Assembly (NCBI RefSeq): GCF_003966565.1
Contig: NZ_AP018718.1
Coordinates: 2,294,001-2,358,000 of the forward strand
DNA: 64,000 nt
Origin: Sulfuricystis multivorans
Lineage (GTDB): Bacteria; Pseudomonadota; Gammaproteobacteria; Burkholderiales; Rhodocyclaceae
Reading direction: 5' to 3'
The stretch's first letter is position 1. Each line of letters starts with the position of its first letter. Below are positions 14,047-60,209 of this stretch, in pieces. The notes beneath the pieces were generated by a model that saw only the letters and a list, made by a program, of their open reading frames with translations, made no database searches and had not been told where the DNA came from. A program made the position numbers and the translations under genes.

Positions 14047-14074
14047 GTGCCGTCTCGCCAGCGCCGAGTTTCGG
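14047..14074 (+). repeat. Dispersed ~25-bp repeat, intergenic copy
   Basis: Reads GTGCCGTCTCGCCAGCGCCG followed by AGTTTCGG and is close to the consensus. It lies in the 111-bp gap between the PhnD-like gene and the flavin reductase gene. See the finding on dispersed repeats. Confidence 0.75.
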
Positions 14075-14098
14075 AATCCCCCGGACGAAGGGGATTAT

Positions 14099-15103
14099 TT
14101 ACTTTGCCGCGTAGCTGAACACGTCGGCGAAGAACTCTTGCGGGGGCAGCCCATGCGCGACGAAATCGCGCTGCGCCGCCTCGCACATCGCCGGCGCGCC
14201 ACAGACATAAGCCTGGTACGCGGACAGATCTGGATGGTCGGCGAGCACGACTTCATGGACTAGGCCAGTGCGACCTTGCCAATCGGCATCCGGCTCGGAA
14301 AGCACCGGAGTGTAGCGAATGCCGTTTTCCTGCGCCCAGCGCTCGCACAGCGCGTTCAGGTAGAGGCCGGCGCGGTTCTTCGCTCCCCAGTAAAGCGCCA
14401 TCGGGCGTTTGATGCCGATGTGCAGCGCATGCTCGATCAGGCCCTTGATCGGTGCAAAGCCAGTGCCGCCGGCGACCAGGAGGATCGGCTTGTCGGATTC
14501 CTCGCGCAGATGGAAGCTGCCGAACGGCCCTTCGATGCGCAGGATCTCCTTGACCTTCATCTTCGAAAACACATGCTCGGTGAAATTGCCGCCAGGAATG
14601 TGGCGCACGTGCAGTTCGAGCAAGTCGTCGGCATGCGGCGCATTGGCGAGCGAAAACGCGCGGCGCTTGCCGCCCGCCAACAGGAACTCGATGTACTGGC
14701 CGGCGAGGAACTGCAGGCGCTCGTTGCTCGGCAGCTTGAGATGAATCACCATCACGTCGTCGGCGACGCGTTCCAGCTGCTCTACGCGGCAGGGCAGGGT
14801 TTTCACCGGGATGTCGCGCGCGGCATTCACCTCATGCACCTCCACGATCACGTCGGAAAGCGGTCTTGCGCAGCACATGAGCGCCATGCCGGCAACACGC
14901 TCATCGGCCGGCAGCGCGCTTTCCTGGGCGGCGCCGAGATCGACCTTTCCCCTAAGCACCTTGGCCTTGCAGGCGCCGCAGGCGCCGTTCTTGCAGCCAT
15001 AGGGCAGGTGGATGCCGGCATCGAGCGCGGCCTCGAGGATCGTCGCGCCATCGGCGACAGAGAAGCTGTGGCCGCTGGGCTGGAGAGTGACTTGATGAGC
15101 CAT
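14099..15103 (-). CDS. 2Fe-2S ferredoxin–flavin reductase (CDP-6-deoxyglucoseen reductase-like)
   Basis: 334 residues. An N-terminal plant-type ferredoxin domain has CKNGACGACKAKVLRG and a later Cys in ALMCCARPL. A flavin-binding domain (GQYIEFLLAGGKRRAFSLAN) and an NAD(P)H-binding domain (ILLVAGGTGFAPIKGL, YVCGAPAMCEAA) follow. This is the oxygenase-reductase layout, carrying electrons from NAD(P)H through FAD to the iron-sulfur cluster. Betaproteobacterial homologues are usually named after AscD, but the acceptor is unknown. It diverges from the SDR gene across only 14 bp. Confidence 0.85.
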   Translation of the reverse strand: MAHQVTLQPSGHSFSVADGATILEAALDAGIHLPYGCKNGACGACKAKVLRGKVDLGAAQESALPADERVAGMALMCCARPLSDVIVEVHEVNAARDIPVKTLPCRVEQLERVADDVMVIHLKLPSNERLQFLAGQYIEFLLAGGKRRAFSLANAPHADDLLELHVRHIPGGNFTEHVFSKMKVKEILRIEGPFGSFHLREESDKPILLVAGGTGFAPIKGLIEHALHIGIKRPMALYWGAKNRAGLYLNALCERWAQENGIRYTPVLSEPDADWQGRTGLVHEVVLADHPDLSAYQAYVCGAPAMCEAAQRDFVAHGLPPQEFFADVFSYAAK

Positions 15104-15105
15104 GC

Positions 15106-15111
15106 GATAAT
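15106..15111 (+). promoter_or_regulatory. Candidate -10 box for a leaderless SDR transcript
   Basis: GATAAT lies 6 nt before the GTG start at 15118. At this spacing transcription would begin at or next to the start codon. Confidence 0.4.
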
Positions 15112-15117
15112 CGTCTG

Positions 15118-16002: not shown

Positions 16003-16406
16003 AAGCCTTCCACATCTTCTTCGTCGTCTCCTGGTTCGCCGGCCTGTTCTATCTGCCGCGCATCTTCGTCAATCTTGCGCTGGTGCCGATGGAAAGCGCC
16101 GCCGAGCGCGAACGCCTGCTCGTGATGGCCAGAAAGCTCTACAAATTCGTCACGCCGATCGGGCTGTTGGCCGTCGTCACCGGCTTGACGCTCTGGTTCG
16201 GCTTTGGTTTTTCCGGTGGCTGGCTGCATGTCAAGACCACGCTGGTCGCCGGGCTGCTCGCCTATCACTTCTACTGCGGCCGTCTGCTGCGGCAGTTTCA
16301 GGCGGGCGCCAACACGCGCTCGCATGTCTGGTTCCGCGTCTTCAACGAGCTGCCCGTGCTGGTGCTACTCGCCGTCGTGATCCTCGTCGTGGTGAAACCG
16401 TTTTGA
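15990..16406 (+). CDS. hemJ: HemJ-type protoporphyrinogen IX oxidase (CopD-like membrane protein)
   Basis: 138 residues with about four transmembrane helices. The opening MLWLKAFHIFFVVSWFAGLF contains the conserved His of HemJ, and RKLYKFVTPIGLLAVVTGL and KTTLVAGLLAYHFYCG follow. HemJ oxidises protoporphyrinogen IX to protoporphyrin IX in the membrane as the penultimate heme step. It is common in bacteria lacking HemG/HemY. The ATG at 15990 overlaps the SDR gene. The heme gene hemE lies elsewhere in the window. Confidence 0.8.
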   Translation: MLWLKAFHIFFVVSWFAGLFYLPRIFVNLALVPMESAAERERLLVMARKLYKFVTPIGLLAVVTGLTLWFGFGFSGGWLHVKTTLVAGLLAYHFYCGRLLRQFQAGANTRSHVWFRVFNELPVLVLLAVVILVVVKPF

Positions 16407-16411
16407 CGCGC

Positions 16412-17641
16412 ATGATCATGCGTCGCCGTGCTGGCCCGCAATGTGACCGCGTAGAACATGGCAGCGTTGGCGCCGGGCCGCCCCAAGCCAACGCGGCTTA
16501 TTTTTCGACCTGCCCCCGCGGGCTGGAGGCGCTGCTCGCCGAGGACATCGCCGCCTGTGGCGGCACCGCGATCACCACGACGCCCGGCGGCGCGGGGTTT
16601 TCGGGCAGCCTGGAAACCTGCTACCGGTTGAACCTCCATTCGCGCATCGCCACCCGCGTGCTGTGCCGTCTCGCCAGCGCCGAATATCGAGACGAGCGCG
16701 ACATCTACCGGCTCGCCTTCGAGATCGCCTGGCCAAGACTGTTCGAGGTCTCGCGCAGCATCCGCGTCTATGTCACCGCGACCAAGGCGCCGGTAAAAAG
16801 CCTCGAATACCTCACGCTGAAAGTCAAGGATGCCGTCTGCGACCGTTTCCGCGCCGATTGTGGCCGCCGGCCCGATGTGAATACCGCGGCGCCCGACGTG
16901 CGCATCCACCTCTACGTCACGGCCACAGAGGCGACCTTGTATCTCGACACCTCGGGCGAGCCCCTGTGGTTAAGAGGCCAGAAAATCGCCAAGGTCGCCG
17001 CGCCGCTGAAGGAAAACCTCGCCGCCGGCATCCTGCGTCTGTCCGGCTGGAGGCCCGGAGTGCCACTGATCGATCCGATGTGCGGCTCGGGTACCTTGCT
17101 GCTCGAGGCGGCCGGGATGGCACTCGATGACGCGCCGGGCCTGTCGCGCGAGATGAAGGATTTCGGCTTCACGAAGTGGCTCGACTACCGGCCGGCGCTG
17201 TGGAAGCGGCTGTGCGTCGAGGCCGCCGAGCGTCGTGTCGCCGCGCCGGGAAAGCTGCCGATCTGGGGAGCCGACCTCAATGCCGATGCCGTGGCGCGCA
17301 CGCGGCAAAACCTGGCCCATGCCGGTCTGGATCACCTGATCGAGGTGCGCAAGATCGACATTCTCGACATCACCCCGCCGGCGCCAGGCGGTGTGCTGGT
17401 CGCCAATCCGCCTTATGGCGAACGTCTTGGCGAGCTCGACGCGCTGGCGGCCTTCTATCCGCGACTCGGCGATGCGCTCAAAAAACGCTTCGCCGGCTGG
17501 AGCTGCTGGTTCCTCTCTGCCGATGCGCGCCTGCCGAAGCTGATCGGTCTGAAGCCGAAGCGAAAGATTCCGCTCTGGAACGGGCCGCTCGAGTGCCGGC
17601 TCTACGGCTTCGATATCGTCGCTGGCAGCGCGCGCAAATGA
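16412..17641 (+). CDS. THUMP-domain rRNA guanine-N2 methyltransferase (RlmL N-domain type)
   Basis: About 409 residues. After the N-terminal YFSTCPRGLEALLAEDI comes a THUMP domain, then a SAM methyltransferase with LIDPMCGSGTLLLEAAG and the catalytic VANPPYGERLGELDAL. It corresponds to the RlmL half of E. coli RlmKL (23S m2G2445) without the RlmK half. The start is uncertain: TTG 16403 overlaps the hemJ stop, and ATGs occur at 16412 and 16418. Homologues begin close to FSTCPRGL, so the ~30 residues before it are extra and include a copy of a 31-bp palindrome (16464-16494). A second dispersed repeat lies at 16663-16686. Confidence 0.8.
   Translation: MIMRRRAGPQCDRVEHGSVGAGPPQANAAYFSTCPRGLEALLAEDIAACGGTAITTTPGGAGFSGSLETCYRLNLHSRIATRVLCRLASAEYRDERDIYRLAFEIAWPRLFEVSRSIRVYVTATKAPVKSLEYLTLKVKDAVCDRFRADCGRRPDVNTAAPDVRIHLYVTATEATLYLDTSGEPLWLRGQKIAKVAAPLKENLAAGILRLSGWRPGVPLIDPMCGSGTLLLEAAGMALDDAPGLSREMKDFGFTKWLDYRPALWKRLCVEAAERRVAAPGKLPIWGADLNADAVARTRQNLAHAGLDHLIEVRKIDILDITPPAPGGVLVANPPYGERLGELDALAAFYPRLGDALKKRFAGWSCWFLSADARLPKLIGLKPKRKIPLWNGPLECRLYGFDIVAGSARK
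16464..16494. repeat. 31-bp palindromic repeat (GCGTTGGC...GCCAACGC), copy in the methyltransferase N-terminus
   Basis: Eight-bp perfect arms flank a GC-rich centre. The same palindrome occurs in each unit of the 165-bp array (25300, 25465, 25630) and, imperfectly, at 29192-29222. Here it is read through in frame as part of the nonconserved N-terminus. Confidence 0.75.
16663..16686 (+). repeat. Dispersed ~25-bp repeat inside the methyltransferase gene
   Basis: GTGCCGTCTCGCCAGCGCCG then AATA, identical to the 14047 copy over the first 20 bp. It is read in frame as CRLASAEY. Confidence 0.7.
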
Positions 17642-17644
17642 TGA

Positions 17645-20407: not shown

Positions 20408-21100
20408 ATGACAACAATTTCTGCCAACCTGCAAGCCGTGAATAGGCGCATTATCCACGCCTGTTCTGCCGCCGGGCGCGACCCGGGCACGGTACGGCTC
20501 ATCGCCGTCTCGAAAACCTTCCCGGCAGAAGCGGTGCGCGAAGCCCATCATGCCGGCCAGCAGGCCTTCGGTGAAAGTTACGTGCAGGAAGCCTTGGCGA
20601 AACAGGCCCAACTTGCCGATCTCGAGCTCGAATGGCATTTCATCGGCCCACTGCAGAGCAACAAAACCAAGGCCGTGGCCGAGCATTTCGCCTGGGTGCA
20701 TTCGGTCGACCGCCTCAAGATCGCCGAGCGGCTCTCGGCGCAGCGCCCCGCCGACCTGCCGCCGCTTAACGTCTGCGTCGAGGTCAATGTCAGCGGCGAA
20801 GCGACCAAGAGCGGCTGCACGCCAGAGGAAGCGCCGGCCTTGTGCCATGCGGTGGCGCAGCTTCCCAATCTCAAGCTGCGCGGCCTGATGACGATCCCGG
20901 CGCCGGCGCCGGACTCGGCGCTGGTCAAACGGCAGTTCGCCCAGCTGCGCTCCCTGTTCGAACGAATCAGGCGGGGTGGCCTGGAGCTCGATACCTTGTC
21001 GATGGGCATGAGCCACGACCTCGAAGAGGCCATCCAAGAGGGCGCGACCATCGTGCGCATCGGCACGGCCATTTTCGGCGAGAGGAAACACACGACATGA
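20408..21100 (+). CDS. yggS: PLP homeostasis protein YggS (PLPBP family)
   Basis: 230 residues with the fold-type III PLP-binding pattern: LIAVSKTFPAEAVREAH carries the PLP lysine, then FGESYVQEALAK, WHFIGPLQSNK, VCVEVNVSGEATKSGC, RGLMTIPAP and LSMGMSHDLEEAIQEGATIVRIGTAIFG near the end. It has no known catalytic activity and buffers PLP. The stop overlaps proC by ATGA, the usual yggS–proC pairing. Confidence 0.93.
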   Translation: MTTISANLQAVNRRIIHACSAAGRDPGTVRLIAVSKTFPAEAVREAHHAGQQAFGESYVQEALAKQAQLADLELEWHFIGPLQSNKTKAVAEHFAWVHSVDRLKIAERLSAQRPADLPPLNVCVEVNVSGEATKSGCTPEEAPALCHAVAQLPNLKLRGLMTIPAPAPDSALVKRQFAQLRSLFERIRRGGLELDTLSMGMSHDLEEAIQEGATIVRIGTAIFGERKHTT

Positions 21101-21909: not shown

Positions 21910-22454
21910 TGCTGGCGCAGATTCTCGCTCTCCTGCTCGGCACCGCGACGAGCCTCATCACCCTCGCCTGTCTTTTGCGCATCTGGATGCAATGGCTGCG
22001 TGCCCCCTTTGGCAATCCCGTCGGCCAGTTCGTCGTCACATTCACCAACTGGGCCGTGTTGCCGTTGCGGCGCCTCGTGCCCGGGCTGTTCGGCCTCGAT
22101 CTGGCCAGCGTGCTGGCCGCTTGGCTTGCGCAATGCGTGTATTTCTTCGTCATGGCGAGCCTGGCCGGCGTCGACATCCTCGCCTGGGGCGGCTTTTTCG
22201 CCCTCGTCTGGACTGCCACCTTGGCGCTCCTCAAACTGTTCGTCTATCTGCTGATGGGCATCGTGATCCTCGCCGCGATCCTGTCATGGATCGCGCCTTA
22301 CGCTCCGGCATCACCGCTGTTTTATGCTCTCGCCGCACCGCTTTTGCAGCCGGCGCGCCGCCTCGTGCCAGTGATCGGCGGGCTCGATTTCGCCCCGCTC
22401 ATCGTCGTCCTGCTGTTGCAGGTGGTGCTGATCGTGCTGGAGAACCTGCGCTGA
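21909..22454 (+). CDS. yggT: YggT-family membrane protein
   Basis: 181 residues with two tandem YggT repeats, each a pair of transmembrane helices around a CLLRIWMQWLR- or ILSWIAPYAP-type segment, then LLQPARRLVPVIGGLDFAPL. The family is implicated in osmotic or K+ tolerance and in envelope processes, but its activity is unclear. TGATG overlap with proC and ATGA overlap with yggU show one operon. Confidence 0.88.
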   Translation: MLAQILALLLGTATSLITLACLLRIWMQWLRAPFGNPVGQFVVTFTNWAVLPLRRLVPGLFGLDLASVLAAWLAQCVYFFVMASLAGVDILAWGGFFALVWTATLALLKLFVYLLMGIVILAAILSWIAPYAPASPLFYALAAPLLQPARRLVPVIGGLDFAPLIVVLLLQVVLIVLENLR

Positions 22455-22747
22455 TGGCTGACTGGATCAAATCAGACGGCGATGGAGTGATCCTCCTACT
22501 CCACATCCAGCCGGGGGCAAAGAAGACCGAGGTCGCCGGCCTGTATGGCAATGCGCTGAAGATCCGGCTTGCCGCACCGCCGGTCGAGGGCAAGGCCAAT
22601 GACGCGCTGCACGCCTTCCTGGCGAAGAAACTCGGCGCTGGCAGGAAGGCAGTGGAGCTCGTCAGTGGCGAGACTTCGCGGACCAAGCGCGTGCGCATCC
22701 TGGGTGTTGCGGCAAAGGACGTGCGGGCGGCACTCGGCATGGGGTGA
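22454..22747 (+). CDS. yggU: YggU/DUF167 family small protein
   Basis: 97 residues. It opens with [20 protein letters not shown] and has the DUF167 core [20 protein letters not shown] and [12 protein letters not shown]. Function is unknown. A dispersed repeat (22628-22651) encodes the KLGAGRKA stretch between these conserved blocks. Confidence 0.88.
22628..22651 (-). repeat. Dispersed ~25-bp repeat inside yggU
   Basis: AAACTCGGCGCTGGCAGGAA then GGCA, the reverse orientation of the 14047 copy. It is read in frame as KLGAGRKA. Confidence 0.65.
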
Positions 22748-24682: not shown

Positions 24683-25278
24683 GATGCTTCCTTTTTCGGT
24701 GCCGCGGGACGCGCATTGATGCGCTGCATCGCGGCGTTGAAATCGCCGTTGATGATGAGCGGCCAGACGGCCAGCGCGCGATCGAGCGCGGCGTCGATTT
24801 CCGCCGCTTCTTCCTTGCGCGGCGGCTTCAACACATAGTCGATCACTTGGTTGCGATCGCCCGGATGGCCGATGCCGATGCGCAGCCGCCAGTAATCCTG
24901 CGTGCCGAGATGGCTGGTGATGTCCTTCAAGCCGTTGTGGCCACCCAAGCCCCCGCCAAACTTGAGGCGCAGTTGGCCCGGCGGCAGGTCGAGCTCGTCA
25001 TGGACGACGAGCATTTCGGCAGGCTCGATGCGGTAGAAATGCAGCACCGCCTGCACCGACAGGCCCGAGCGATTCATGAAGGTCTGCGGTTTCAAGAGGA
25101 AAAAATCGGCGCTGCCGACACGGCGTTTGGCGATGAGTCCATGAAAACGTGCTTCGCGCGCAAACGGCACGCCAAGCTCACGCGCCAGCCGCTCACAAAA
25201 CCAAAACCCGGCGTTGTGCCGGGTTTCAAGGTAGTCGGGGCCTGGGTTGCCCAGCCCGACGACGAGACGCAGCGCCAC
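24679..25278 (-). CDS. pth: Peptidyl-tRNA hydrolase
   Basis: 199 residues. [20 protein letters not shown] contains the catalytic His; [23 protein letters not shown] and GHNGLKDI are further Pth motifs. It releases tRNA from peptidyl-tRNA that has dropped off the ribosome. The start is taken as GTG 25278, where homology begins; the frame continues upstream into the 165-bp repeat array without similarity. It is separated from rplY by the array, so its expression may depend on reading through that structured region. Confidence 0.92.
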
Positions 25279-25299
25279 AGGGAAACGATCATCCACGCA

Positions 25300-25775: not shown

Positions 25776-25778
25776 ATA

Positions 25779-28250: not shown

Positions 28251-29070
28251 TCTGGGCGGCACGAAGACCGAGATCATCGTGCTGGGCGACGATGGCGCGA
28301 CGCTGCTGCGCGAGCGCGCGCCCACCCCGCGCGGCGATTATGCGGCGACGGTGGCGACGATCGCCTCATTGGTGCGCAGGGCCGAGCAAAAACTCGGCGT
28401 TGGCGGGACGGCACCACCGATCCCCGTGGGCATCGGCATCCCTGGTGCCGAATCGCGGGTCAGCGGGCTGATCAAGAACGCCAATTCGACCTGGCTGATC
28501 GGCAAGCCTTTGCGTGCCGATCTGGAAGCGGCGCTGTCCCGGCCGGTGCGGCTGGCCAACGATGCCAATTGTTTCGCGCTCTCCGAAGCGACCGATGGCG
28601 CGGCAGCGGGCGCAACGGTGGTTTTCGGCGTGATCCTCGGCACGGGTGTCGGCGGCGGCATCGTCGTCGAGGGCAAAGTGCTGGTGGGGCCGAACGCGAT
28701 CGCCGGCGAATGGGGTCACAACCCGCTGCCGGGCGCGAGCGAAGGACGCCCCTGCTACTGCGGCCGTCAGGATTGCATCGAGACTTATCTTTCCGGCCCG
28801 GCGTTGGCGCTCGATGGCGGCGCCGACGACGAAGCCGCGCTCGAGCGCTACGAGCGCCGGCTCGCCCGGGCGCTCGCCGGTGTCATCAATCTGCTCGACC
28901 CGGACGTGATCGTCTTGGGCGGCGGCGTGTCGAACCTCGATCGGCTGTATGATCGCGTTCCCCGCCTGTGGCGCGAATGGGTGTTCTCCGACCACGTCGC
29001 CACTCGACTGCTCAAAAACCGGCATGGCGACTCGTCCGGGGTCAGAGGCGCCGCCTGGCTGTGGGGCTGA
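28234..29070 (+). CDS. ROK-family sugar kinase, fructokinase (Mak)-like
   Basis: 278 residues. The N-terminal ATP phosphate loop is [20 protein letters not shown]; the catalytic Asp region is [14 protein letters not shown]. The [14 protein letters not shown] stretch and zinc motif [15 protein letters not shown] are the Mak/NagK type, closest to Mak fructokinase. It phosphorylates a hexose (fructose, glucose or N-acetylglucosamine) with ATP. A dispersed repeat (28388-28414) encodes KLGVGGTA in a loop before the conserved PVGIGIPGA. Confidence 0.85.
28388..28414 (-). repeat. Dispersed ~25-bp repeat inside the ROK kinase gene
   Basis: AAAAACTCGGCGTTGGCGGG then ACGGCAC. It is read in frame as KLGVGGTA between conserved blocks. 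Confidence 0.65.
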
Positions 29071-29090: not shown

Positions 29091-29222
29091 GACCCGCCCC
29101 CCTTCGCCCCCCTCGCGGGGGGGTTCCAGACAGGCTCGCTGCGCTCGCGGACATGTAAACGGCGGTGCGGTTTGCGGCTTCGCCGCGTGCCGCGTTGGCT
29201 CGGGGCGGCCCTTCGCCAACAC
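29091..29222 (-). repeat. Diverged inverted copy of the 165-bp repeat unit
   Basis: The 175-bp gap between the ROK kinase and thioredoxin genes is mostly this element. GACCCGCCCCCCTTCGCCCC with a strong CCCCCC/GGGGGG hairpin starts it, and the 31-bp palindrome, with one imperfect arm (29192-29222), ends it. The middle has diverged and is shorter than the 25-kb units. The hairpin 21 bp after the kinase stop could terminate transcription. Confidence 0.85.
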
Positions 29223-29245
29223 TGCGCTTTAAACTACTTCTTGCT

Positions 29246-42769: not shown

Positions 42770-44551
42770 TCAGACATCGGCGTTTCTCCCTACAGAGGCG
42801 ATGGGCAATTGTACGCAAACGCTCGCGCCACCGCCTTCGGCCAAAGGCCGGTTGGCGAGCGTCACGGTACCGCCGTGATCGACGACGATCTTGTGCACGA
42901 TCGCCAGCCCAAGGCCCGTGCCCTTCGGCTTGGTCGTCACATAGGGCTCGAACGCATGCTGGAGGATCTCGGGCGGGAAGCCCGGGCCGTCGTCTTCGAC
43001 GGTCAGCTCGACGTTGCGGCCTTGCGAACGGGTCCTGACGATGATGCGTGCCGTCTTGCCAGCGCCGAGTTTTTCACTGCCGGCCTCGCTGGCGTTCTTG
43101 ATCAGATTGTGCAGCACCTGGCGGATCTGGTCGGCATCGGCCAACACCGGCGGCAGGAGCGGATCGAGTTCGGTTTCGATGCCGAAGCCGCTGCTGGCAT
43201 AGAGTTCGAGCACCTCGGCGATCAGCCGGTTCAGATCGAGCGGCTGCGGATTCGGCGGCGGCAGGCGCGCATAGTCGCGAAAGTCGTTGACCATCGCCTT
43301 CATCGCCTCGACCTGATCGACGATGGTCTTCGTCGCCCGCTCGAGTATCGCGGCATCTTCCGGCGCGAGCTTGCCAGCAAGTTTCATCTGCAGCCGTTCG
43401 GCCGACAGTTGGATCGGCGTGAGCGGATTCTTGATCTCGTGGGCGAGCCGGCGGGCCACTTCGCCCCAGACTGCGGCGCGCTGCGCGGCTTCGCGTTCGA
43501 TGCGCGCCTGGGCGAGCTGTTGCGTCATCTCGTTGAACGAGCGCGTCAGCACCCCCAGCTCGTCGTCGGTCTCCAGCACCGCGCGCGGTGTCAGATCGCC
43601 GGCGGCCACCGCCCGCGTGCCTTCGGCGAGCATCAGCAGCGGCTTGGCGAGCCGGCCGGCGAGGAAGAAGGCCAGCGCGATCGCGGCGAACAGCGCCAGC
43701 AGCAACGCAAAGGTCAGGGTCAGCGTATAGAGGCGTTTGAGGCCAATGCGACCGAGCTGCAATTGCTGGTAGTCGCGCTGCGCGGCCTCCACCAGGGCGG
43801 CGCTTTGCGCGATCGCGGCCGGCACTGGCTGCTCGAGCTGCAGGATCAGCGGCTCGGCCGCGAAATGATAGGCGCGCACCGGAACGAGGGCGCGCACCAC
43901 GAAGCCGCTTCCCGCATCGCCCTCGACACGCGCGCTGCCCGTGCCGCTACGCGCCTGCCGCAGCTCGGCCGGGTCGGGCAGCGGCGGCAGGAGATCTTGC
44001 TGCTCGCTGGCGCTGCTGCTGGCGATCAGCTGGCCGCTCGCCGTCACCAGCACGGCGGCATTCACGCCGGCCTGTTCGCGCAGGCGATTGAGGAGCACCG
44101 CCCCCGGCGCAGGCACTTCGGCCAGATCGAAGGCCATCGAACGGCCTTTGACGAGGAGCTCGGCTTGCATCGTCTCGAACACGCTGTGCGCGAGATCCAG
44201 TCCGCCGTCGAGCGCGGCCTCGATGCGCACGTCGAACCATGAGTCGATGCTTTTCACCGCGAACTGCATCGAAACCGCATACACCAGCACGCCGGGCAGC
44301 ACCGCCATCATCGCCAGCATCATCATCAGCCGCGTCTTGAGGCGTGCGCCGAACACGCCTTGGCGCCGATCGCGCCACAGGCGGCGCAACTGGGTGATGA
44401 CCAGTCCGAGCAGCAGGAGGGCCGCCAGCGCATTGAAGACGATCAACAGCGGCGTGTGGCGGGCGAACAGGGCGGTATCGGCGGAAGCCGAGGTGAGTAG
44501 GATCACCAGCATGCCGCCGAGCGCCGCGGCGAGTGTCAAGGCGATGATCAT
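42770..44551 (-). CDS. NtrY-like membrane sensor histidine kinase
   Basis: 593 residues. Transmembrane segments near residues 5-20, 35-55 and 75-100 precede an extracytoplasmic region, then another helix (LTLTFALLLALFAAIALAFF) and a HAMP domain (LMLAEGTRAVAAGDLTPRAV). HisKA has RLAHEIKNPLTPIQLSAERL; HATPase has NLIKNASEA, DDGPGFP, and GTGLGLAIVHKIV. No PAS domain is evident. It pairs with the NtrX-like regulator downstream. A dispersed repeat (43048-43074) encodes KLGAGKTA in the variable loop after the N-box. The start overlaps DUF4390 by ATGA. Confidence 0.9.
   Translation of the reverse strand: MIIALTLAAALGGMLVILLTSASADTALFARHTPLLIVFNALAALLLLGLVITQLRRLWRDRRQGVFGARLKTRLMMMLAMMAVLPGVLVYAVSMQFAVKSIDSWFDVRIEAALDGGLDLAHSVFETMQAELLVKGRSMAFDLAEVPAPGAVLLNRLREQAGVNAAVLVTASGQLIASSSASEQQDLLPPLPDPAELRQARSGTGSARVEGDAGSGFVVRALVPVRAYHFAAEPLILQLEQPVPAAIAQSAALVEAAQRDYQQLQLGRIGLKRLYTLTLTFALLLALFAAIALAFFLAGRLAKPLLMLAEGTRAVAAGDLTPRAVLETDDELGVLTRSFNEMTQQLAQARIEREAAQRAAVWGEVARRLAHEIKNPLTPIQLSAERLQMKLAGKLAPEDAAILERATKTIVDQVEAMKAMVNDFRDYARLPPPNPQPLDLNRLIAEVLELYASSGFGIETELDPLLPPVLADADQIRQVLHNLIKNASEAGSEKLGAGKTARIIVRTRSQGRNVELTVEDDGPGFPPEILQHAFEPYVTTKPKGTGLGLAIVHKIVVDHGGTVTLANRPLAEGGGASVCVQLPIASVGRNADV
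43048..43074 (+). repeat. Dispersed ~25-bp repeat inside the NtrY-like kinase
   Basis: GTGCCGTCTTGCCAGCGCCG then AGTTTTT. It is read on the minus strand as KLGAGKTA between the N-box and G1 region. Confidence 0.75.
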
Positions 44552-45138: not shown

Positions 45139-46378
45139 GAGTGGCCGAGGGCATCAGTTGCAGTTCTTCTTCGCTGCCGCCCGTCGGCAGGCGGCGCGCA
45201 TCCGGATGACGCGCAACGAACGCGCGCACCTGCCCGGCATTTTCGCCGGGAAACACCGAACAGGTGCAGTAGAGCATTTTGCCACCGGGGGCCAGGAGCG
45301 GCCACAAGGCATCGAGAATGGCGGCCTGGGTCTGTGCGAATCCCGCCACATCCTCGGGGCGCCGCAGCCACTTGATGTCCGGGTGGCGGCGCACCACCCC
45401 GGAAGCGGAGCAGGGCACATCGGCGAGAATGCGCTCGAAAAGCCGACCGTCCCACCAGCCCGCCGGTTTACGCGCATCGCCGATTTCTACCTTCGCGGCA
45501 AGATGAAGTCGAGCGAGGTTTTCCTCGATGCGCCGGGCGCGGGCGGCATCGACTTCCAGCGCGGTCAGCTCGATCTCATGCCGCTCCAAAAGATGCGCGC
45601 TCTTGCCGCCGGGCGCCGCGCAGGCATCCAGCACGCGCATGCCGTCCTGGGCATCGAGGAGCCGCGCCGCCTGCTGGGCGCCCCAGTCCTGCACCGAGAC
45701 GCAACCTGCCTGAAAGCCGGGGAGGCGCTCGACCGGCAAGGGGGCTTCGAGCAGGATCGCCGTCTCGTCGAGCGTCTGCCCCGCACCGCCGGCTTTGGCC
45801 AACTGCGCGAGAAATTCGGCGCTGGTGATGCGGCACCGCGCGTTCAACCGCAGCGTCATTGGCGGATGACCATTGCCGCTGGCGGCGATCTCCCGCCAGC
45901 ATTCCGGATAGGCCTCGGCGAGCAGCGCGAGCCACCAGCGCGGATGGCGGAAAGAAGCCACTTCGTCGGCATCCGCCGCGGCGATGAGCTCTGCGCGGCG
46001 GCGCTGGAAATGGCGCAAGATGGCATTGGTCAATTTCTTGAATGGCTTGTCGGCAGCCTCGACGGCCTGATCGACGAGGGTGTGCGCTTCTTCGGGTCGG
46101 CGCTCCAGACGGGCGAGCGCGACGAGCAGAAGCGATCGCGCCGCCTTGTCTTTCAGCGGCCGCTCGAGCAAGCGGGCAAGGAAAAAATCGCCGCGGCCAT
46201 AATCGCGCAAGGCAGTCATCGCCAGATCGCGCGCGGCCGGCCGCAGTTCGATGGGCAGCGCGGCAAGCGTCGTCTCCGGGGTGCGGCCGGCGAGCACTTC
46301 CACAACCGCGCCCACCGCAGCGGCGAGCGCCCGGGAAAGCGGCGGGTTGCGAAAGGAAGGCGGAAAGGTGGCATTCAT
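45098..46378 (-). CDS. rsmB: 16S rRNA (cytosine-967-C5)-methyltransferase
   Basis: 426 residues. An N-terminal NusB-like RNA-binding domain precedes a SAM methyltransferase with VLDACAAPGGKSAHLLE, the catalytic Cys in ILADVPCSASGVVRRHPDIK, and CTCSVFPGENAGQV. It methylates C967 of 16S rRNA. A repeat-like stretch at 45811-45836 encodes CRITSAEF between LRLNA and the loop that follows. It diverges from homospermidine synthase across 44 bp. Confidence 0.94.
   Translation of the reverse strand: MNATFPPSFRNPPLSRALAAAVGAVVEVLAGRTPETTLAALPIELRPAARDLAMTALRDYGRGDFFLARLLERPLKDKAARSLLLVALARLERRPEEAHTLVDQAVEAADKPFKKLTNAILRHFQRRRAELIAAADADEVASFRHPRWWLALLAEAYPECWREIAASGNGHPPMTLRLNARCRITSAEFLAQLAKAGGAGQTLDETAILLEAPLPVERLPGFQAGCVSVQDWGAQQAARLLDAQDGMRVLDACAAPGGKSAHLLERHEIELTALEVDAARARRIEENLARLHLAAKVEIGDARKPAGWWDGRLFERILADVPCSASGVVRRHPDIKWLRRPEDVAGFAQTQAAILDALWPLLAPGGKMLYCTCSVFPGENAGQVRAFVARHPDARRLPTGGSEEELQLMPSATHDGFYYALLEKMP
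45811..45836 (-). repeat. Dispersed ~25-bp repeat (diverged) inside rsmB
   Basis: GAAATTCGGCGCTGGTGATG then CGGCAC. It is read on the minus strand as CRITSAEF, close to the CRLASAEF reading of the 14047 and 16663 copies. Confidence 0.5.
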
Positions 46379-47838: not shown

Positions 47839-48748
47839 ATCTTTCGCCGGCAGCGAGCGGAAAACCGCGCAGGAAATCGGCAGCGGGCAGCCGCCGGCCG
47901 CCAGGCTTCTGCAGCTCGGTCAAGCGCAATGCGCCTTCGCCGCAGGCGACGACGATGCCGGAAGGCCCAACGGCAATGATTTCACCTGGCCGGCCTGCAC
48001 CTTCCGCAAGCTCTGCATGCCACAGCTTCAGCGTCGTCTCTCCCAGCTGCGAGGTAGAACCCGGGAACGGATCGAAGGCGCGCAAGCGCCGTTCGATCTC
48101 GACGGCCGGACGCGTCCAGTCGATCCGTCCTTCGGCCTTGTCGATCTTTGCCGCATAGGTCGCGCCTTGCTCAGGCTGCGGCGTCGGCTTCAGGCTGTCG
48201 AGCCTGGTGAGCGCCTCGACGATCAGCCGGCCGCCGAGGTTGGCAAGCTTGTCGGTGAGGCTTTCTGCCGTCTCGTCAGGGCCGATTTTCAGTCTTTCGG
48301 CCAGCAGCATCGGCCCGGTGTCGAGTCCGGCATCCATCTGCATGATCGTGATGCCCGTTTCAAGATCGCCCGCCTCGATCGCGCGCGCAATCGGCGCCGC
48401 CCCCCGCCAGCGCGGCAGCAGCGAGGCATGGATGTTGACGCAACCGCGCCTCGGGATGTCGAGCACGGCCGGCGGCAGAATCAAACCGTAGGCCGCGACC
48501 ACCAACACATCGGGCGCGGCGGCGATCAACGGCGCATGGGTTGCGGGATCGCGCAGCTTTTCCGGCTGATGGACGGCAATGCCGTGGGCCAACGCCACGT
48601 CTTTGACGGGGCTCGTGACGAGTTTCTGCCCGCGCCCAGACGGGCGGTCGGGCTGGGTCAGCACCAGCGGGATGTCGAAACCGGCAGCGATCAGCGCCCG
48701 CAGCGCGATGGCGGCGAACTCGGGCGTGCCGGCAAAGGCGACTTTCAT
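47816..48748 (-). CDS. fmt: Methionyl-tRNA formyltransferase
   Basis: 310 residues. [19 protein letters not shown] opens the protein; [14 protein letters not shown] and [16 protein letters not shown] are the catalytic-domain motifs, and [13 protein letters not shown] follows. It formylates initiator Met-tRNA. ATG 48748 overlaps the def stop by ATGA, the classic def–fmt pair. A longer in-frame extension upstream lies within def and is rejected. Confidence 0.95.
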
Positions 48749-51491: not shown

Positions 51492-54017
51492 ATGAGCAAA
51501 CAATTGATCATCGCCGAAAAGCCATCGGTCGCGCAGGACATCGCGCGTGCCCTGGGCGGTTTCACTCGCGAGGGTGACTATTTCGAGAGCGAGTACTATG
51601 TGCTGTCCTCGGCCGTAGGCCATCTTCTGGAACTGGCCGTGCCGGAGGAATATGAGGTCAAGCGCGGTAAATGGAGTTTCAGCCATCTGCCGGTGATTCC
51701 GCCACGCTTCACGCTGCATCCGATCGAGAAGACCGCCGATCGCCTGAAGTTGCTCGTGCGGCTTGCCAAGCGCAAGGATGTCGTGGCGCTGATCAATGCC
51801 TGCGACGCGGGACGCGAAGGCGAGCTGATCTTCCGCTACATCGTCCAGTTTGCCAAGATCGACAAGCCGATCCGTAGGCTGTGGCTGCAGTCGATGACGC
51901 CACAGGCGATCAAGGACGGCTTTGCCCACCTGCGCACCGATGAAGAGATGCTGCCGCTCGCGGATGCAGCGCGCTGCCGCTCGGAGGCCGACTGGCTGAT
52001 CGGCATCAACGGCACGCGCGCGATGACCGCCTTCAATTCTCAGGAAGGCGGCTTCTATAAAACCACCGTCGGCCGCGTGCAAACGCCGACCTTGGCGATC
52101 CTCGTCGAGCGCGAGAAGGCGATCCGCGCCTTCCAGCCGCGCGACTACTGGGAGGTCGAGGCCGAGTTCCAGGCGGTCGCTGGCACTTATCGCGGCAAAT
52201 GGTTCGACGAAAAATTCAAAAAGTCGGACGATGAGCATGCCAGGGCCGAGCGCCTGTGGGACATCGAGCAGGCCGAGGCGCTGCGCAAGAAGTGTCTGGG
52301 CAAGCATGGCGAGGTCACGGAAGAGGCAACCCCCAAGACCGAAGCCTGTCCGCTGCTCTACGATCTCACCAGTCTTCAGCGCGACGCCAACGGCCGCTTC
52401 GGCTTTTCGGCACGCAACACCCTGGCGCTCGCCCAAGCGCTCTACGAAAAACACAAGGTGCTGACCTATCCGCGTACCGACAGCCGATACTTACCCGAGG
52501 ACATGATCGGCGCCGTCAAGGAGACGCTCGCGGCGCTGACCGATTCGCCCCTCGGCCAGCATGCCGCAACGGTGCTCAAAAACGGCTGGGTGCATCCGAC
52601 CAAGCGCATCTTCGACAACGCCAAGGTCTCCGACCACTTCGCGATCATTCCCACCGGCACCCCGCCGAAACATCTTTCCGAGCCCGAGCAGAAACTCTAT
52701 GACCTCGTCGTCAAGCGTTTCATCGCGATCTTTTACCCTGCCGCCGAGTATCTCGTCACGACGCGCATCACGCGCGTCGAAGGGGAGCCGTTCAAGACCG
52801 TCGGCAAGGTGCTGGTGACCCCGGGGTGGCTCGCCGTCTATGGCAAGGAGGCGCAGGGGGGGGAAGAGAGCCCGAATCTACCACCGCTGGCCAAGAACGA
52901 ACGGGTGTGGACCAACGACGTCGAAGTGAAACCCAACCACACCAAGCCGCCGCCACGCTTCAACGAAGCGACGCTGCTCACGGCAATGGAAGGCGCCGGC
53001 AAGCTGGTCGAAGACGAAGAACTCCGGGAGGCGATGCTTGATCGGGGCCTGGGCACGCCGGCCACCCGCGCGGCGATCATCGAAGGATTGATCCAGGAAG
53101 AATACGTGCATCGTCACGGCCGCGAATTGCAGCCGACCGCCAAGGCCTTCAACCTGCTGTTCGCCCTCGAACAGCTCAAAGTCGACGAGATCCGCTCGCC
53201 GGAGCTCACCGGGCTGTGGGAATGGAAGCTCAGGGAGATGGAACATGGGCGCCTAAAGCGCGAGGCGTTCATGGCGCACATCGTCGAGCAGACGCGCGAG
53301 ATGGTCGAACGCATCAAGACCGGCGAGCTGCACGACACCGATTTCGGCACGCTCGAAACGCCTTGCCCGAAATGTGGCGGAAAAATCCACGAGACCTACC
53401 GCTACTTCAAGTGCGACCAGTGCGACTACAAGCTGTGGAAGGTGATCGCCGGCCGCCAGTGGGAGCCGGAGGAAATGGAAGAGCTGCTGAAAAACCGGCA
53501 GATCGGCCCGCTTTCCGGCTTTCGCAGCAAGATGGGGCGCGCCTTTTCCGCCGTCATCCGCCTCGATGAGGATTTCGCGCCGAAGTTCGACTTCGGCAAC
53601 GAGGAGGATGCGGCCGAGGCAGTCGATTTCAGCGGACAGGTGCCGTTGGGCCCCTGCCCGAAGTGCGGCGCGCGGGTATTCGAAATGCCGATGGCCTACG
53701 TCTGCGAAAAGGCCGTAGGTTCAGCGAAGTCCTGCGACTTCCGCTCTGGCAAGGTGATCCTGCAGCAGGAAATCTCCCGCGCCGAGATGCAGAAGCTGCT
53801 CGAAACCGGCCGGACCTCATTACTCAAGGGCTTCGTCTCGAACCGCACGAAGAAGAAGTTTTCCGCCTATCTGGTGCGCAACGCCTCCGGCAAGATCGGC
53901 TTCGAGTTCGAGCAGCGCACGGCAAAACCTACCCAGGCGAAGACGGAAACGAAAGTCGGCGCTGGTGAGGCGGCAAGCGCAGCGAAAAAGTCCTCGACGA
54001 GAAAGAAAAGCGGCTGA
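51492..54017 (+). CDS. topB: DNA topoisomerase III (type IA)
   Basis: 841 residues, longer than E. coli TopB (653) because of extra C-terminal domains. The Toprim motif is QLIIAEKPSVAQDIARALGG; INACDAGREGELIFRYI supplies metal ligands, and the active-site Tyr is in LTYPRTDSRYLP. The C-terminus carries zinc ribbons (CPKCGGKIHET...CDQC and CPKCGARVFE) and a Lys-rich tail. A dispersed repeat (53951-53976) encodes KVGAGEAAS in that tail. It decatenates DNA in replication and recombination. Confidence 0.94.
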   Translation: MSKQLIIAEKPSVAQDIARALGGFTREGDYFESEYYVLSSAVGHLLELAVPEEYEVKRGKWSFSHLPVIPPRFTLHPIEKTADRLKLLVRLAKRKDVVALINACDAGREGELIFRYIVQFAKIDKPIRRLWLQSMTPQAIKDGFAHLRTDEEMLPLADAARCRSEADWLIGINGTRAMTAFNSQEGGFYKTTVGRVQTPTLAILVEREKAIRAFQPRDYWEVEAEFQAVAGTYRGKWFDEKFKKSDDEHARAERLWDIEQAEALRKKCLGKHGEVTEEATPKTEACPLLYDLTSLQRDANGRFGFSARNTLALAQALYEKHKVLTYPRTDSRYLPEDMIGAVKETLAALTDSPLGQHAATVLKNGWVHPTKRIFDNAKVSDHFAIIPTGTPPKHLSEPEQKLYDLVVKRFIAIFYPAAEYLVTTRITRVEGEPFKTVGKVLVTPGWLAVYGKEAQGGEESPNLPPLAKNERVWTNDVEVKPNHTKPPPRFNEATLLTAMEGAGKLVEDEELREAMLDRGLGTPATRAAIIEGLIQEEYVHRHGRELQPTAKAFNLLFALEQLKVDEIRSPELTGLWEWKLREMEHGRLKREAFMAHIVEQTREMVERIKTGELHDTDFGTLETPCPKCGGKIHETYRYFKCDQCDYKLWKVIAGRQWEPEEMEELLKNRQIGPLSGFRSKMGRAFSAVIRLDEDFAPKFDFGNEEDAAEAVDFSGQVPLGPCPKCGARVFEMPMAYVCEKAVGSAKSCDFRSGKVILQQEISRAEMQKLLETGRTSLLKGFVSNRTKKKFSAYLVRNASGKIGFEFEQRTAKPTQAKTETKVGAGEAASAAKKSSTRKKSG
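53951..53976 (-). repeat. Dispersed ~25-bp repeat inside the topB tail
   Basis: GAAAGTCGGCGCTGGTGAGG then CGGCAA. It is read in frame as KVGAGEAA, 14 codons before the stop. Confidence 0.65.
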
Positions 54018-56126: not shown

Positions 56127-56130
56127 TGCC

Positions 56131-58044: not shown

Positions 58045-58047
58045 AAT
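58042..58047 (+). promoter_or_regulatory. Candidate -10 box for leaderless tonB transcript
   Basis: TAGAAT overlaps the stop codon of the upstream exonuclease gene and lies 6 nt before ATG 58054. Confidence 0.4.
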
Positions 58048-58053
58048 TTCCCC

Positions 58054-58938
58054 ATGCCCCTTTCCCTCGACTGGCCCGCTCCACTGGCAACGCTGGATGC
58101 ATCGCGACGGCGGCTGACGCTCGCAGTTGGCATTTCATTGTTCCTGCACGCGATCCTCTTGTCGATCCACTTCAAGCTGCCCGAGAAGCTCGACCATGTC
58201 CGCGAGCAGGCGCTCGACGTCATCCTCGTCAATGCCAAGCACGCCGAAAAACCCGTCAAGACGCAGGCCAAGGCACAGGCGAACCTCGATGCCGGCGGCA
58301 ACATCGACGCGCCACGGCGTGCCAAGACTCCGCTGCCGCCCAGCCGGGAGAGCCACAGCGGTGACGACCTCATCGCCGCCCGCCAGCGCGTCGCGCTGCT
58401 CGAACAGCAGCAGCGTGAGCTGATCACCAAACATGGTACGGAGCATGCCATCCGGCCGCAGACCGAACCCACTCTCGATGCGCACCAGGCCGAGATTTCC
58501 GGCCGCGATCTCGCCACTGCGGCGCGGGCATTGGTGCGGCTGGAAGCGGAAATCGCCCGTTCGATCGACGAATACAACCAACGGCCGAAACGCAAGTTCA
58601 TCGGCGCGCGCGTCGAGGAATACCGTTTCGCGCAATATGTCGAGGACTGGCGCCAGAAGGTCGAGCGCGTCGGCAACCTCAACTATCCCGAAGCGGCGCG
58701 CGGCAAGCTCTACGGCAGCCTGATCCTCACCGTGGCGATCAAGAGCGATGGTAGCCTCGAGCGCGTCGAGCTCAATCGCTCCTCCGGCCACAAGGTGCTC
58801 GACGAGGCGGCACAACGCATCGTGCGCCTGGCCGCGCCTTTCGCTGCCTTCCCGGAGAACATCCGCCGCGATACCGATATCATCGAAATCACCCGCACCT
58901 GGACGTTTACCGGTGCGGATCGACTTGCCACCCAATAG
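58054..58938 (+). CDS. TonB-family energy transducer
   Basis: 294 residues. One N-terminal transmembrane helix (LTLAVGISLFLHAILLSIHF), a periplasmic linker with a coiled-coil-like segment (VALLEQQQRELI), and a C-terminal TonB domain (VGNLNYPEAARGKLYGSLIL, VELNRSSGHKVLDEAAQRIV). It would link the proton-motive force to outer-membrane receptors, or serve a structural role. No exbB/exbD or receptor is adjacent, so its partner is unknown. Confidence 0.88.
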   Translation: MPLSLDWPAPLATLDASRRRLTLAVGISLFLHAILLSIHFKLPEKLDHVREQALDVILVNAKHAEKPVKTQAKAQANLDAGGNIDAPRRAKTPLPPSRESHSGDDLIAARQRVALLEQQQRELITKHGTEHAIRPQTEPTLDAHQAEISGRDLATAARALVRLEAEIARSIDEYNQRPKRKFIGARVEEYRFAQYVEDWRQKVERVGNLNYPEAARGKLYGSLILTVAIKSDGSLERVELNRSSGHKVLDEAAQRIVRLAAPFAAFPENIRRDTDIIEITRTWTFTGADRLATQ

Positions 58939-58949
58939 AAGGACATCTC

Positions 58950-60209
58950 ATGGCTCTCTCTGCCGACGACGTCAGCATGGCGCTGTTCTGCGATTTCGAA
59001 AACATCGCGCTCGGCGTGCGTGATGCGCAGTATGAAAAATTCGACATCAAGCCGGTGCTCGAACGCCTGCTGCTCAAGGGCAGCATCGTCGTCAAGAAGG
59101 CCTATTGCGACTGGGAGCGCTACAAGAGCTTCAAGGCGGCGATGCACGAGGCGAACTTCGAGCTGATCGAAATCCCGCACGTGCGCCAGTCGGGCAAGAA
59201 CTCGGCCGACATCCGCATGGTCGTCGATGCGCTCGATCTCTGTTACACCAAGAGCCACGTCAATACCTTCGTCATCATCTCGGGCGACTCGGACTTCTCG
59301 CCGCTGGTGTCGAAGCTGCGCGAGAACGCCAAGCGGGTGATTGGTGTCGGCGTCAAGCAATCGACCTCCGACTTGTTGATCGCCAACTGCGACGAGTTCA
59401 TCTACATCGACGACCTGATGAGGAAACGGAGCCGCGAGGACAAGCAGGCGAAGAAACCTGCCGATCCGCAGGAAATGGAGGCGCGCCGCACCAAGGGTCT
59501 GGAGATGGCCGCCGCCACGCTGGAAGCGCTGCTCGAAGACCGCAGTGACGACGAGAAGGTCTGGGCCTCGGTGCTCAAGGAAGCGATCAAGCGTCGCCAT
59601 CCGGGTTTCAACGAGGCCTATCACGGCTTCAAGACCTTCGGCGCGCTGCTCGAAGAGGCGGCGCGGCGCGGGCTGATGGAAGTCGGCCGCGAGGCCAACA
59701 GCACCTATGTGAAACGGCGCCTCGCGCAGACTTCGGCCGAAGCGACGCCGGCCGAAATGGCAGCCCCCGAGCCTGCGACGACGCTGCCGAGCCCATCCGC
59801 GGCCGAGGGTGCCGTCCCGCCAGCGCCGACTTTGCGAGGTGAGGCGGCGCCCGGCGGGACGTCTCCTATTCCGCCAGCGCCGACTTTGCGAGGTGAGGCG
59901 GCGCCCGGCGGGACGTCTCCTATTCCGCCAGTGCCGACTTTGGAGTCTCCGTCGGCAGAAGCCGCCGCACCCGCGCCGGCGCCCCGCCGTCGTGGCCGCG
60001 GCCGCAAACCCGCCGCAGCGGCCGAAGCGCCGGCCGCCGCAGAATCCGCTCCCGTAAAGCCCGCCGAACCCGCCAAAGCGGCATCAGCCGCTTCCGTTGA
60101 ATCGGCACCGGCTGCTCCCGTCGAGGCCAAGACCGAAGCGCAAAGAAAGCTCGTCCGCAAGCCGCGCAGTCCGCGGCGTCGCAAAGATCAGGCGCCCGTC
60201 GCGTCCTGA
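58950..60209 (+). CDS. NYN-domain ribonuclease-like protein with LOTUS domain and repeat-rich tail
   Basis: 419 residues. The N-terminal NYN/DUF88 (LabA-like PIN-fold) domain has MALFCDFENIALGVRDAQYE, SADIRMVVDALDLCY and FVIISGDSDFSPLVSKLREN, with the acidic residues of a metal-dependent RNase. An OST-HTH/LOTUS RNA-binding domain follows (VWASVLKEAIKRRHPGFNEA, then GFKTFGALLEEAA). The last ~150 residues are Pro/Ala-rich and disordered, include two tandem 18-residue repeats (PAPTLRGEAAPGGTSPIP), and end in a basic RRRK tail. It is probably an RNA-processing factor; the substrate is unknown. Confidence 0.9.
   Translation: MALSADDVSMALFCDFENIALGVRDAQYEKFDIKPVLERLLLKGSIVVKKAYCDWERYKSFKAAMHEANFELIEIPHVRQSGKNSADIRMVVDALDLCYTKSHVNTFVIISGDSDFSPLVSKLRENAKRVIGVGVKQSTSDLLIANCDEFIYIDDLMRKRSREDKQAKKPADPQEMEARRTKGLEMAAATLEALLEDRSDDEKVWASVLKEAIKRRHPGFNEAYHGFKTFGALLEEAARRGLMEVGREANSTYVKRRLAQTSAEATPAEMAAPEPATTLPSPSAAEGAVPPAPTLRGEAAPGGTSPIPPAPTLRGEAAPGGTSPIPPVPTLESPSAEAAAPAPAPRRRGRGRKPAAAAEAPAAAESAPVKPAEPAKAASAASVESAPAAPVEAKTEAQRKLVRKPRSPRRRKDQAPVAS
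59809..59941 (+). repeat. 54-bp tandem repeats built on the dispersed ~25-bp repeat
   Basis: GTGCCGTCCCGCCAGCGCCG then ACTTT at 59809-59833 is a copy of the dispersed repeat. From 59821 a 54-bp unit (18 codons) is repeated twice exactly (59821-59874, 59875-59928), with a partial third copy from 59929. The unit starts with the CAGCGCCGACTTT core, so the dispersed element appears to have been expanded in tandem within the coding frame. Confidence 0.85.

What the first reader, a model, noticed from the sequence alone, without database searches (positions are those of the whole stretch)
14047..59941. Degenerate ~25-bp sequence dispersed on both strands, mostly inside unrelated genes
A sequence close to GTGCCGTCTCGCCAGCGCCG-ASTTTCG occurs at 14047, 16663, 34701, 43048 and 59809 on the plus strand, and at 22628, 28388, 45811 and 53951 on the minus strand. 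That is about one per 7 kb. Most copies are inside genes (rRNA methyltransferase, yggU, ROK kinase, priA, NtrY-like kinase, rsmB, topB, NYN protein). They are read in different frames, giving KLGAGxxA, CRLASAEF or VPPAPT, and sit in linkers or variable loops. Recurrence in unrelated proteins and frames means selection or spread acts on DNA, not protein. Candidate explanations are a REP-like element moved by a RAYT-type transposase, a DNA-uptake or chromosome-organising signal, or a protein-tolerated mobile linker. dprA and pil genes in the window make an uptake role worth testing, but that is speculation.
Basis: partly seen in the sequence, partly recalled or inferred. Interest (0 to 1): 0.78.

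Follow-up and report, generated by a model that had tools for sequence, protein, structure and literature searches.

The report
Genome-wide 24-letter DNA uptake-like motif
A 24-letter DNA word is written hundreds of times, at fairly regular intervals, across the main chromosome of this bacterium and some relatives, mostly inside genes, in the manner of the "self" tags that some bacteria use when they take up DNA, although that function has not been tested here.

Summary
The unit is a sharp-edged 24-bp motif, TGCCGT-CYY-G-CCAGCGCCGA-N-TTT (about 30 bits). The window holds 17 strong copies. A contiguous 464-kb stretch of the same chromosome holds 103, against 0.5 expected, without strand bias. 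The nearest named relatives are Rhodocyclaceae (Betaproteobacteria). More than 200 hits occur in 9 of 101 sampled family members; outside the family counts are near background, apart from a few exact copies.

Single copies are not insertions: at RsmB, Fmt and one PriA site, relatives without the motif have no 24-bp gap. The DNA word is conserved with little regard to codon position. Spacing is more regular than random. Two plasmid-like contigs lack it. Single copies do not fold, and the genome has no RAYT transposase. The best reading is an uptake-sequence-like genome motif kept by biased uptake and recombination; uptake itself is inferred.

Two features are not explained. In own and one sister species, 54-bp hairpin units extend some copies (24+54n bp), as at 59810-59941. 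The motif centre also differs as a block at some orthologous sites, which suggests copying between sites.

The parts
166..189 (-). 24-bp motif copy (35.9 bits), inside ORF 17-955 (+)
   Evidence: kept at the orthologous site in G019
8448..8471 (+). 24-bp motif copy (30.2 bits), inside ORF 8149-9207 (+)
   Evidence: identical in G019; no gap against G023
14048..14071 (+). 24-bp motif copy (38.8 bits), intergenic between predicted genes 13103-13987 and 14099-15103
16664..16687 (+). 24-bp motif copy (33.8 bits) inside the RlmL-like rRNA methyltransferase gene 16403-17641; G019 carries centre variant B at the orthologous site
20911..20934 (-). 24-bp motif copy (24.9 bits) inside predicted gene 20438-21100 (+)
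   Evidence: identical in G019
22628..22651 (-). 24-bp motif copy (35.2 bits) inside the DUF167/YggU gene 22454-22747 (+)
25102..25125 (-). 24-bp motif copy (28.8 bits) inside predicted gene 24679-25296 (-)
28390..28413 (-). 24-bp motif copy (34.1 bits) inside predicted gene 28234-29070 (+)
33287..33310 (-). 24-bp motif copy (31.2 bits) inside priA (33088-35070, -)
34702..34725 (+). 24-bp motif copy (36.3 bits) inside priA (33088-35070, -)
43049..43072 (+). 24-bp motif copy (38.4 bits) inside the NtrY-like kinase gene 42770-44551 (-); G019 has a 78-bp (24+54) form here
45812..45835 (-). 24-bp motif copy (26.3 bits) inside rsmB (45098-46378, -)
48266..48289 (+). 24-bp motif copy (31.6 bits) inside fmt (47816-48748, -)
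53952..53975 (-). 24-bp motif copy (33.0 bits) in the C-terminal tail of the topoisomerase gene 51492-54017 (+)
59810..59833 (+). first motif copy (39.2 bits) of a 24+2x54-bp array inside the NYN-domain gene 58950-60209 (+)
59813..59861 (+). imperfect hairpin formed by the first motif and the arm in the 54-bp unit (outer stem 59813-59821 with 59853-59861)
   Evidence: MFE -22.5 kcal/mol as DNA, z -2.4
59864..59887 (+). second array unit copy (24.2 bits), 54 bp after the first
59918..59941 (+). third array unit copy (19.5 bits), 54 bp after the second

Best explanation
The copies are instances of a genome-saturating DNA motif that works like a DNA uptake sequence. A cell-surface receptor of the type IV pilus/competence machinery would prefer fragments of own-lineage DNA that carry the word. 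Recombination of the taken-up DNA then pulls near-matching, protein-tolerated stretches of the chromosome towards the word by point changes, and keeps it there. Shown: the motif, its abundance, over-regular spacing, lack of strand bias, in-place origin without 24-bp insertions at three testable sites, DNA-level conservation (moderate), lineage dialects, and absence from plasmid-like contigs. Inferred: recognition by an uptake receptor, competence of the organism, and the drive. The hairpin arrays, found here in own and G019 only, look like a younger derivative of unknown mechanism.
For: Abundance: 103 sites at 15 bits or more in 464 kb against 0.5 by chance; strands 54/54 among the 108 at 12 bits or more. 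Spacing in own: 97 loci, CV 0.633 against 0.98 for uniform placement, 5 gaps under 1 kb against 18.1 expected, P 0 of 5000 for both; in G019: 102 loci, CV 0.827 (P 0.035), 6 short gaps against 19.3 (P 0 of 5000). Not insertions: of 29 other RsmB orthologues (22 of them from genomes not saturated with the motif) G019 is equal in length, 24 lack one residue at the site, one lacks that and one residue further on, two are longer, and one (motif-bearing G080) is about 10 residues shorter; of 20 more, 19 lack one residue and one lacks four. Fmt (six orthologues) and priA-33287 (seven) show no extra residues in own. Shared site: rsmB carries the motif in own, G019, G001, G069 and G038 and a near form in G064 (16 of 18 aligned positions), but not in the bearing genomes G080, G008 and G046; non-bearing genomes match at 4-15 of 21 positions. 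DNA-level conservation, own against G019: conserved motif positions differ at 0.077-0.097 of third codon positions against 0.227-0.233 in flanks, while second positions are freer (0.090-0.105 against 0.060). Acquired DNA: contigs C2 and C3 (240 of 252 kb read) hold 2 weak hits against 56 expected; interior G019 runs without own homology (47 kb) hold 3 against 10.7. Dialects: position 1 is T in own (96%) and in 17 of 18 in G019, 4 of 6 in G080, but C in 13 of 14 in G069, 9 of 9 in G046 and 6 of 8 in G023. ComEC (PF03772) and a ComP_DUS-family pilin (PF16732) are encoded in own. Published uptake sequences share these traits: DUS spacing matching conversion fragments, scarcity in acquired DNA, permissive core locations (PMC2397512, passages); origin by point mutation and reported even spacing (PMC1939737, passages).
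Against: No uptake or competence data for this organism. ComEC and ComP_DUS-family pilins occur in all 25 genomes tested, bearing or not, so neither tracks the motif. The motif is twice as long as the 12-bp DUS and sparser than the almost 1,500 copies quoted for Neisseria (PMC2346458). The CTG core reported for all DUS dialects is absent at the matching place. Centre variants B and C differ from A by 4-5 bases at once at orthologous sites, which gradual point mutation does not predict. Hairpin arrays are not predicted. The third-position reduction is partly ascertainment: for own-ascertained sites 0.097 is close to the 0.114 that a two-fold ascertainment effect alone would give; only the G019-ascertained 0.077 is clearly lower. 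Spacing is only mildly over-regular in G019 by CV. [quoted passage not shown]
Confidence: 0.57

Rival explanations
1. The motif is the binding site of an intracellular chromosome-organising or repair protein, placed about every 4.7 kb on the chromosome and not needed on plasmids.
For: Regular spacing, chromosome-only occurrence, 30-bit specificity. The even-spacing argument was once made for Haemophilus uptake sequences too (PMC1939737, passages).
Against: No strand bias in 464 kb whose GC skew is negative, though weakly, in 11 of 12 windows, so not KOPS- or Chi-like. Lineage-restricted: 9 of 101 family genomes above 200 hits. No candidate protein was sought.
Confidence: 0.2
2. A short mobile element (REP-, CGTC- or RPE-like) inserts as the 78-bp hairpin form and collapses to 24-bp scars by deletion between its direct repeats.
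For: Arrays of 24+54n bp; own 24 bp against G019 78 bp at the NtrY site. 48 and 60 near-identical hairpin arms. The array folds. The first unit in G019 NtrY is centre type B and the second type A, as a conversion intermediate would be.
Against: No 24-bp insertion against orthologues at RsmB, Fmt or priA-33287. At up to 2 mismatches the hairpin arm is absent from G080 and nine other searched genomes, although all ten carry 34 to 664 core-motif hits. No RAYT. Spacing is over-regular.
Confidence: 0.1
3. A writer copies the motif into near-matching chromosomal sites, for example short single-stranded DNA or a template-switch between dispersed copies, so that the sites evolve in concert.
For: The same centre difference, CCAGC in G019 and AAGCC in own, occurs at 4 aligned sites, and centre type B sits in G019 at 3 sites that are type A in own; at one site (own 41549) the deviations outside the centre are shared. 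Variant C: 19 in own, 0 in G019, 2 in G046, 0 in the nine other genomes.
Against: Few events: of 9 candidate type-C sites in 464 kb only 4 could be aligned cleanly. No reverse transcriptase or other writer was searched for; direction of change unknown.
Confidence: 0.1

Closest known systems
Neisseriaceae DNA uptake sequence (DUS, ATGCCGTCTGAA) read by ComP
   Same: Dispersed, both strands, many copies intragenic, scarce in acquired DNA, lineage dialects, two dialects co-occurring in one genome reported (PMC3630211 and PMC2397512, passages). Both motifs contain TGCCGTCT. The Neisseriaceae fall in the same GTDB order as the Rhodocyclaceae (recalled).
   Different: 24 bp instead of 10-12; the DUS core CTG is absent at the matching place (CTC); the consensus has no stop codon in any of the six frames, whereas all DUS dialects but one carry UGA in one frame (PMC3630211, passage); lower density; receptor unknown.
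Pasteurellaceae uptake signal sequence (USS)
   Same: Genome saturation, origin by point mutation rather than insertion, reported even spacing (PMC1939737, passages).
   Different: Unrelated sequence; GC-rich, without the AT-rich flanks of USS (recalled).
CGTC-tagged REP repeats, including Rickettsia RPE-4/RPE-6 and Neisseria dRS3
   Same: Contain CGTC; intragenic REPs known; no dedicated transposase (PMC3733652, passages).
   Different: Here CGTC lies inside the stem of the array hairpin, single copies do not fold, and single copies are not insertions where tested.
KOPS / Chi polar chromosomal motifs
   Same: Dispersed chromosomal word.
   Different: About three times as long (recalled lengths) and without strand bias.

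Membership tests
DNA uptake sequence (DUS/USS) | Strong genome-wide over-representation | tested here: met
   386 against 5; 103 against 0.5
DNA uptake sequence (DUS/USS) | No chromosomal orientation bias | tested here: met
   54/54 in 464 kb
DNA uptake sequence (DUS/USS) | Arises in place, not by insertion | tested here: met
   RsmB, Fmt, priA-33287; several other window sites inconclusive
DNA uptake sequence (DUS/USS) | Scarce in acquired DNA | tested here: met
   C2/C3: 2 weak against 56 expected; interior G019 non-homologous runs 3 against 10.7. Own has one interior run, 3.7 kb, 0 hits; its range-end runs test nothing
DNA uptake sequence (DUS/USS) | Lineage dialects | tested here: met
   T or C at position 1; N is C in 14 of 14 in G069; G080 mixed, 4 T and 2 C
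DNA uptake sequence (DUS/USS) | Cognate pilin receptor | tested here: inconclusive
   PF16732 in 25 of 25 genomes, bearing or not
DNA uptake sequence (DUS/USS) | Sequence enhances DNA uptake and transformation | not testable with these tools
   needs an uptake assay
Neisserial DUS proper | CTG core shared by all dialects | tested here: not met
   motif reads TGCCGTCTC where DUS reads TGCCGTCTG (motif; DUS from PMC2346458; core from PMC3630211)
REP with RAYT | RAYT (Y1 transposase) gene in the genome | tested here: not met
   PF01797: 0 matches at E <= 0.001 in own genome; 5 of 14 control genomes positive
REP with RAYT | Each copy is a palindrome | tested here: not met
   two single copies folded: z 0.09 and 1.19; the array unit z -2.4
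CGTC-tagged REP | CGTC tag outside the stem | tested here: not met
   CGTC is paired in the array fold
RPE-like in-frame insertion | Empty site in orthologues | tested here: not met
   no 8-residue gap at RsmB, Fmt, priA-33287
KOPS / Chi | Polarity with replication | tested here: not met
   54/54; GC skew weakly negative in 11 of 12 40-kb windows

The most novel reading that the evidence does not exclude
A separate lineage of uptake-type genome marking in the Rhodocyclaceae with a 24-bp word, in which dispersed sites also exchange their centre as a block (types A, B and C), so that the marks are rewritten in concert by short-tract copying between non-homologous places.
Probability: 0.25. Interest if true: 0.9.

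Novelty: new variant of a known kind. Interest (0 to 1): 0.72.

Why it matters
The papers I saw speak of uptake sequences in Neisseriaceae and Pasteurellaceae. A third, lineage-restricted case with a longer word, related genera lacking it, and two close genomes for comparison would make it testable how such marking starts, spreads, changes dialect and decays. It may also predict which environmental Rhodocyclaceae are naturally transformable. The block differences of the centre, if confirmed, would add a copying process that the point-mutation model of uptake-sequence evolution lacks.

Tried and rejected
RAYT-mobilised REP: rejected for lack of a Y1 transposase and of a palindrome in single copies. 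Mobile 24-bp linker: rejected on orthologue alignments at three sites. KOPS/Chi polarity: rejected. My early guess that the host was alphaproteobacterial: dropped. ComEC and ComP_DUS as markers of bearing genomes: uninformative, present in all 25. A permissive hairpin-arm scan gave mostly chance hits, its output was cut, and it was replaced. Inconclusive window sites: the topoisomerase copy lies in a variable tail; the 28390 site is next to a small length change; rlmL, 20911, yggU and the NYN gene had only the G019 orthologue; the NtrY, 8448 and 34702 sites differ by two residues or fewer from G023, which is itself a low-bearing genome. Literature: no paper on a dispersed or uptake motif in Rhodocyclaceae among the listings; one search returned none. 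Three papers held the 11-mer GCCAGCGCCGA (listing only, unrelated titles). PMC12616744 was searched for six terms with no hit, so nothing of it was seen beyond its listing. The library lacks most subscription journals.
Full report
What is there. Aligned copies show a unit of 24 bp: information is near zero on both sides and high from position 1 to 24, except at 7-10, which are partly degenerate, and 21, which has background composition. The word is TGCCGT-CYY-G-CCAGCGCCGA-N-TTT. It is 8 codons long and the consensus has no stop codon in any of the six frames (read directly). A matrix built on a 464-kb contiguous stretch that includes the window finds 103 sites at 15 bits or more, against none with the reversed matrix and 0.5 with shuffled columns.

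Who has it. The genome (2.81 Mb; contigs of 2.56 Mb, 149 kb and 103 kb) is unnamed. The four best named RsmB matches, in a scan that was capped and may leave out the own record, are Rhodocyclaceae/Rhodocyclales metagenome assemblies at 60-69% identity, two of which also carry full motif copies. In a sample of 101 genomes of the family, 9 exceed 200 hits (own, G019, G080, G001, G069, G008, G038, G046, G064), four have 24-43 (G018, G023, G045, G056), and the rest have 19 or fewer. In 250 genomes of the order (8 of them of the own family) and 274 of the class, none outside the family exceeds 12 and 4 hits, at up to 3 and 2 mismatches. On an RsmB tree of 50 rows the nine bearing genomes fall in one 12-row part (support 89/86) with three non- or low-bearing ones; the label needs 3 changes, against 8.4 in shuffles. 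One gene is a weak guide, and one origin with losses is possible but not shown.

Not insertions. In RsmB, of 29 other orthologues G019 is equal in length, 24 lack one residue at the site, one lacks that and one more further on, two are longer, and one (G080, itself bearing) is about 10 residues shorter. Of 20 more, 19 lack one residue and one lacks four. The motif is there in own, G019, G001, G069 and G038 (17-21 of 21 scored positions, three being gapped for the last three) and in near form in G064 (16 of 18), but not in bearing G080, G008 and G046 (13, 11, 8); non-bearing genomes match at 4-15. Fmt (six orthologues, two of them from genomes not saturated with the motif) and priA-33287 (seven, four such) show no extra residues in own. 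Other window sites are inconclusive. So at the testable sites the word was written over existing sequence where the protein allowed it; the reading frames used fit this.

Kept at the DNA level. Own and G019 are 83-91% identical in most of the longer aligned blocks of the window. Of 108 own sites, 80 align without gaps and keep the motif, 9 align but do not, 11 have gaps in the alignment, 4 are not spanned and 4 have no homologous region. In the reverse direction 78 of 115 are kept, 9 lost, 10 gapped, 13 not spanned and 5 without homologue. At conserved motif positions the third codon position differs at 0.077-0.097 against about 0.23 in flanks, while second positions differ more than in flanks. 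Part of the third-position effect is ascertainment, so I count this as moderate evidence.

Where it lies. Spacing is over-regular in own (CV 0.633, P 0 of 5000) and less so in G019 (CV 0.827, P 0.035), where the longest gap (29 kb) spans an 18-kb run without own homology; gaps under 1 kb are rare in both, 5 against 18.1 and 6 against 19.3. Two smaller contigs of lower GC hold two weak hits in 240 kb against 56 expected. Interior G019 runs without own homology (47 kb) hold 3 hits against 10.7. Own has only one such interior run (3.7 kb, 0 hits); its other runs lie at the ends of the compared ranges. There is no strand bias. Intergenic sites are not enriched between convergent genes (3 of 22), so terminators are not the main role.

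Two oddities. First, some loci are arrays of 24+54n bp: the 54-bp unit carries a second arm that pairs with the motif. The window's 59810-59941 is such an array with n = 2, inside an NYN-domain gene and in frame. At the NtrY site own has 24 bp and G019 78 bp. The arm occurs 48 times in own, 60 in G019 and, at up to 2 mismatches, not at all in ten other genomes including same-genus G080. Second, the centre has alternative forms. Type C (AAGCC for CCAGC) occurs 19 times in own, never in G019, twice in G046, and not in nine others. Of 9 candidate type-C sites in 464 kb, 4 align cleanly with G019, which has type A at each; two align only with gaps, one is not spanned and two have no homologue. At three sites G019 has type B where own has A. 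Identical multi-base differences at unrelated places suggest copying between sites; I found no mechanism.

Interpretation. The closest functional analogues are uptake sequences. Published DUS/USS traits seen here: over-representation, no orientation bias, permissive intragenic positions, scarcity in acquired DNA, origin by point change, dialects, and reported even spacing (PMC2346458, part 1 of 3 read; PMC2397512, PMC1939737, PMC3630211, passages). PMC1939737 also says that known uptake sequences are less even than a compaction signal should be. The motif shares TGCCGTCT with the neisserial DUS ATGCCGTCTGAA, a lead only; the DUS core CTG is not there, so it is not filed as a neisserial DUS. 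ComEC and a ComP_DUS-family pilin are encoded, but also in non-bearing relatives. An intracellular chromosome-organising role predicts much the same map and remains the main rival.

Noticed in passing
25296-25790, also 16461-16497 and 29189-29225: A different hairpin-like repeat (about 37 nt, GCGTTGGC...GCCAACGC), present as a 165-bp unit in three tandem copies; 5 copies in 464 kb of own and 3 in 480 kb of G019 at up to 5 mismatches.
   Followed up: partly
L258-L261 (G181), L262-L263 (G571), L264 (G478), L265 (G467), L266 (G542): A few exact single motif copies lie within open frames of genomes from distant families that otherwise have few or no hits; transferred DNA or assembly contamination are possible.
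   Followed up: partly
L226 (own C1 near 1721386-1722318): A hairpin-array arm lies about 700 bp from the ComP_DUS-family pilin gene of the own genome.
   Followed up: no
G018, G023, G045, G056: Genomes with 24-43 hits, between background and saturation, might be losing, gaining or importing the motif.
   Followed up: no
G000 contigs C2 and C3: Two contigs (149 and 103 kb) of 55-58% GC against 65% for the window, practically without the motif, look like plasmids; their genes were not examined.
   Followed up: partly
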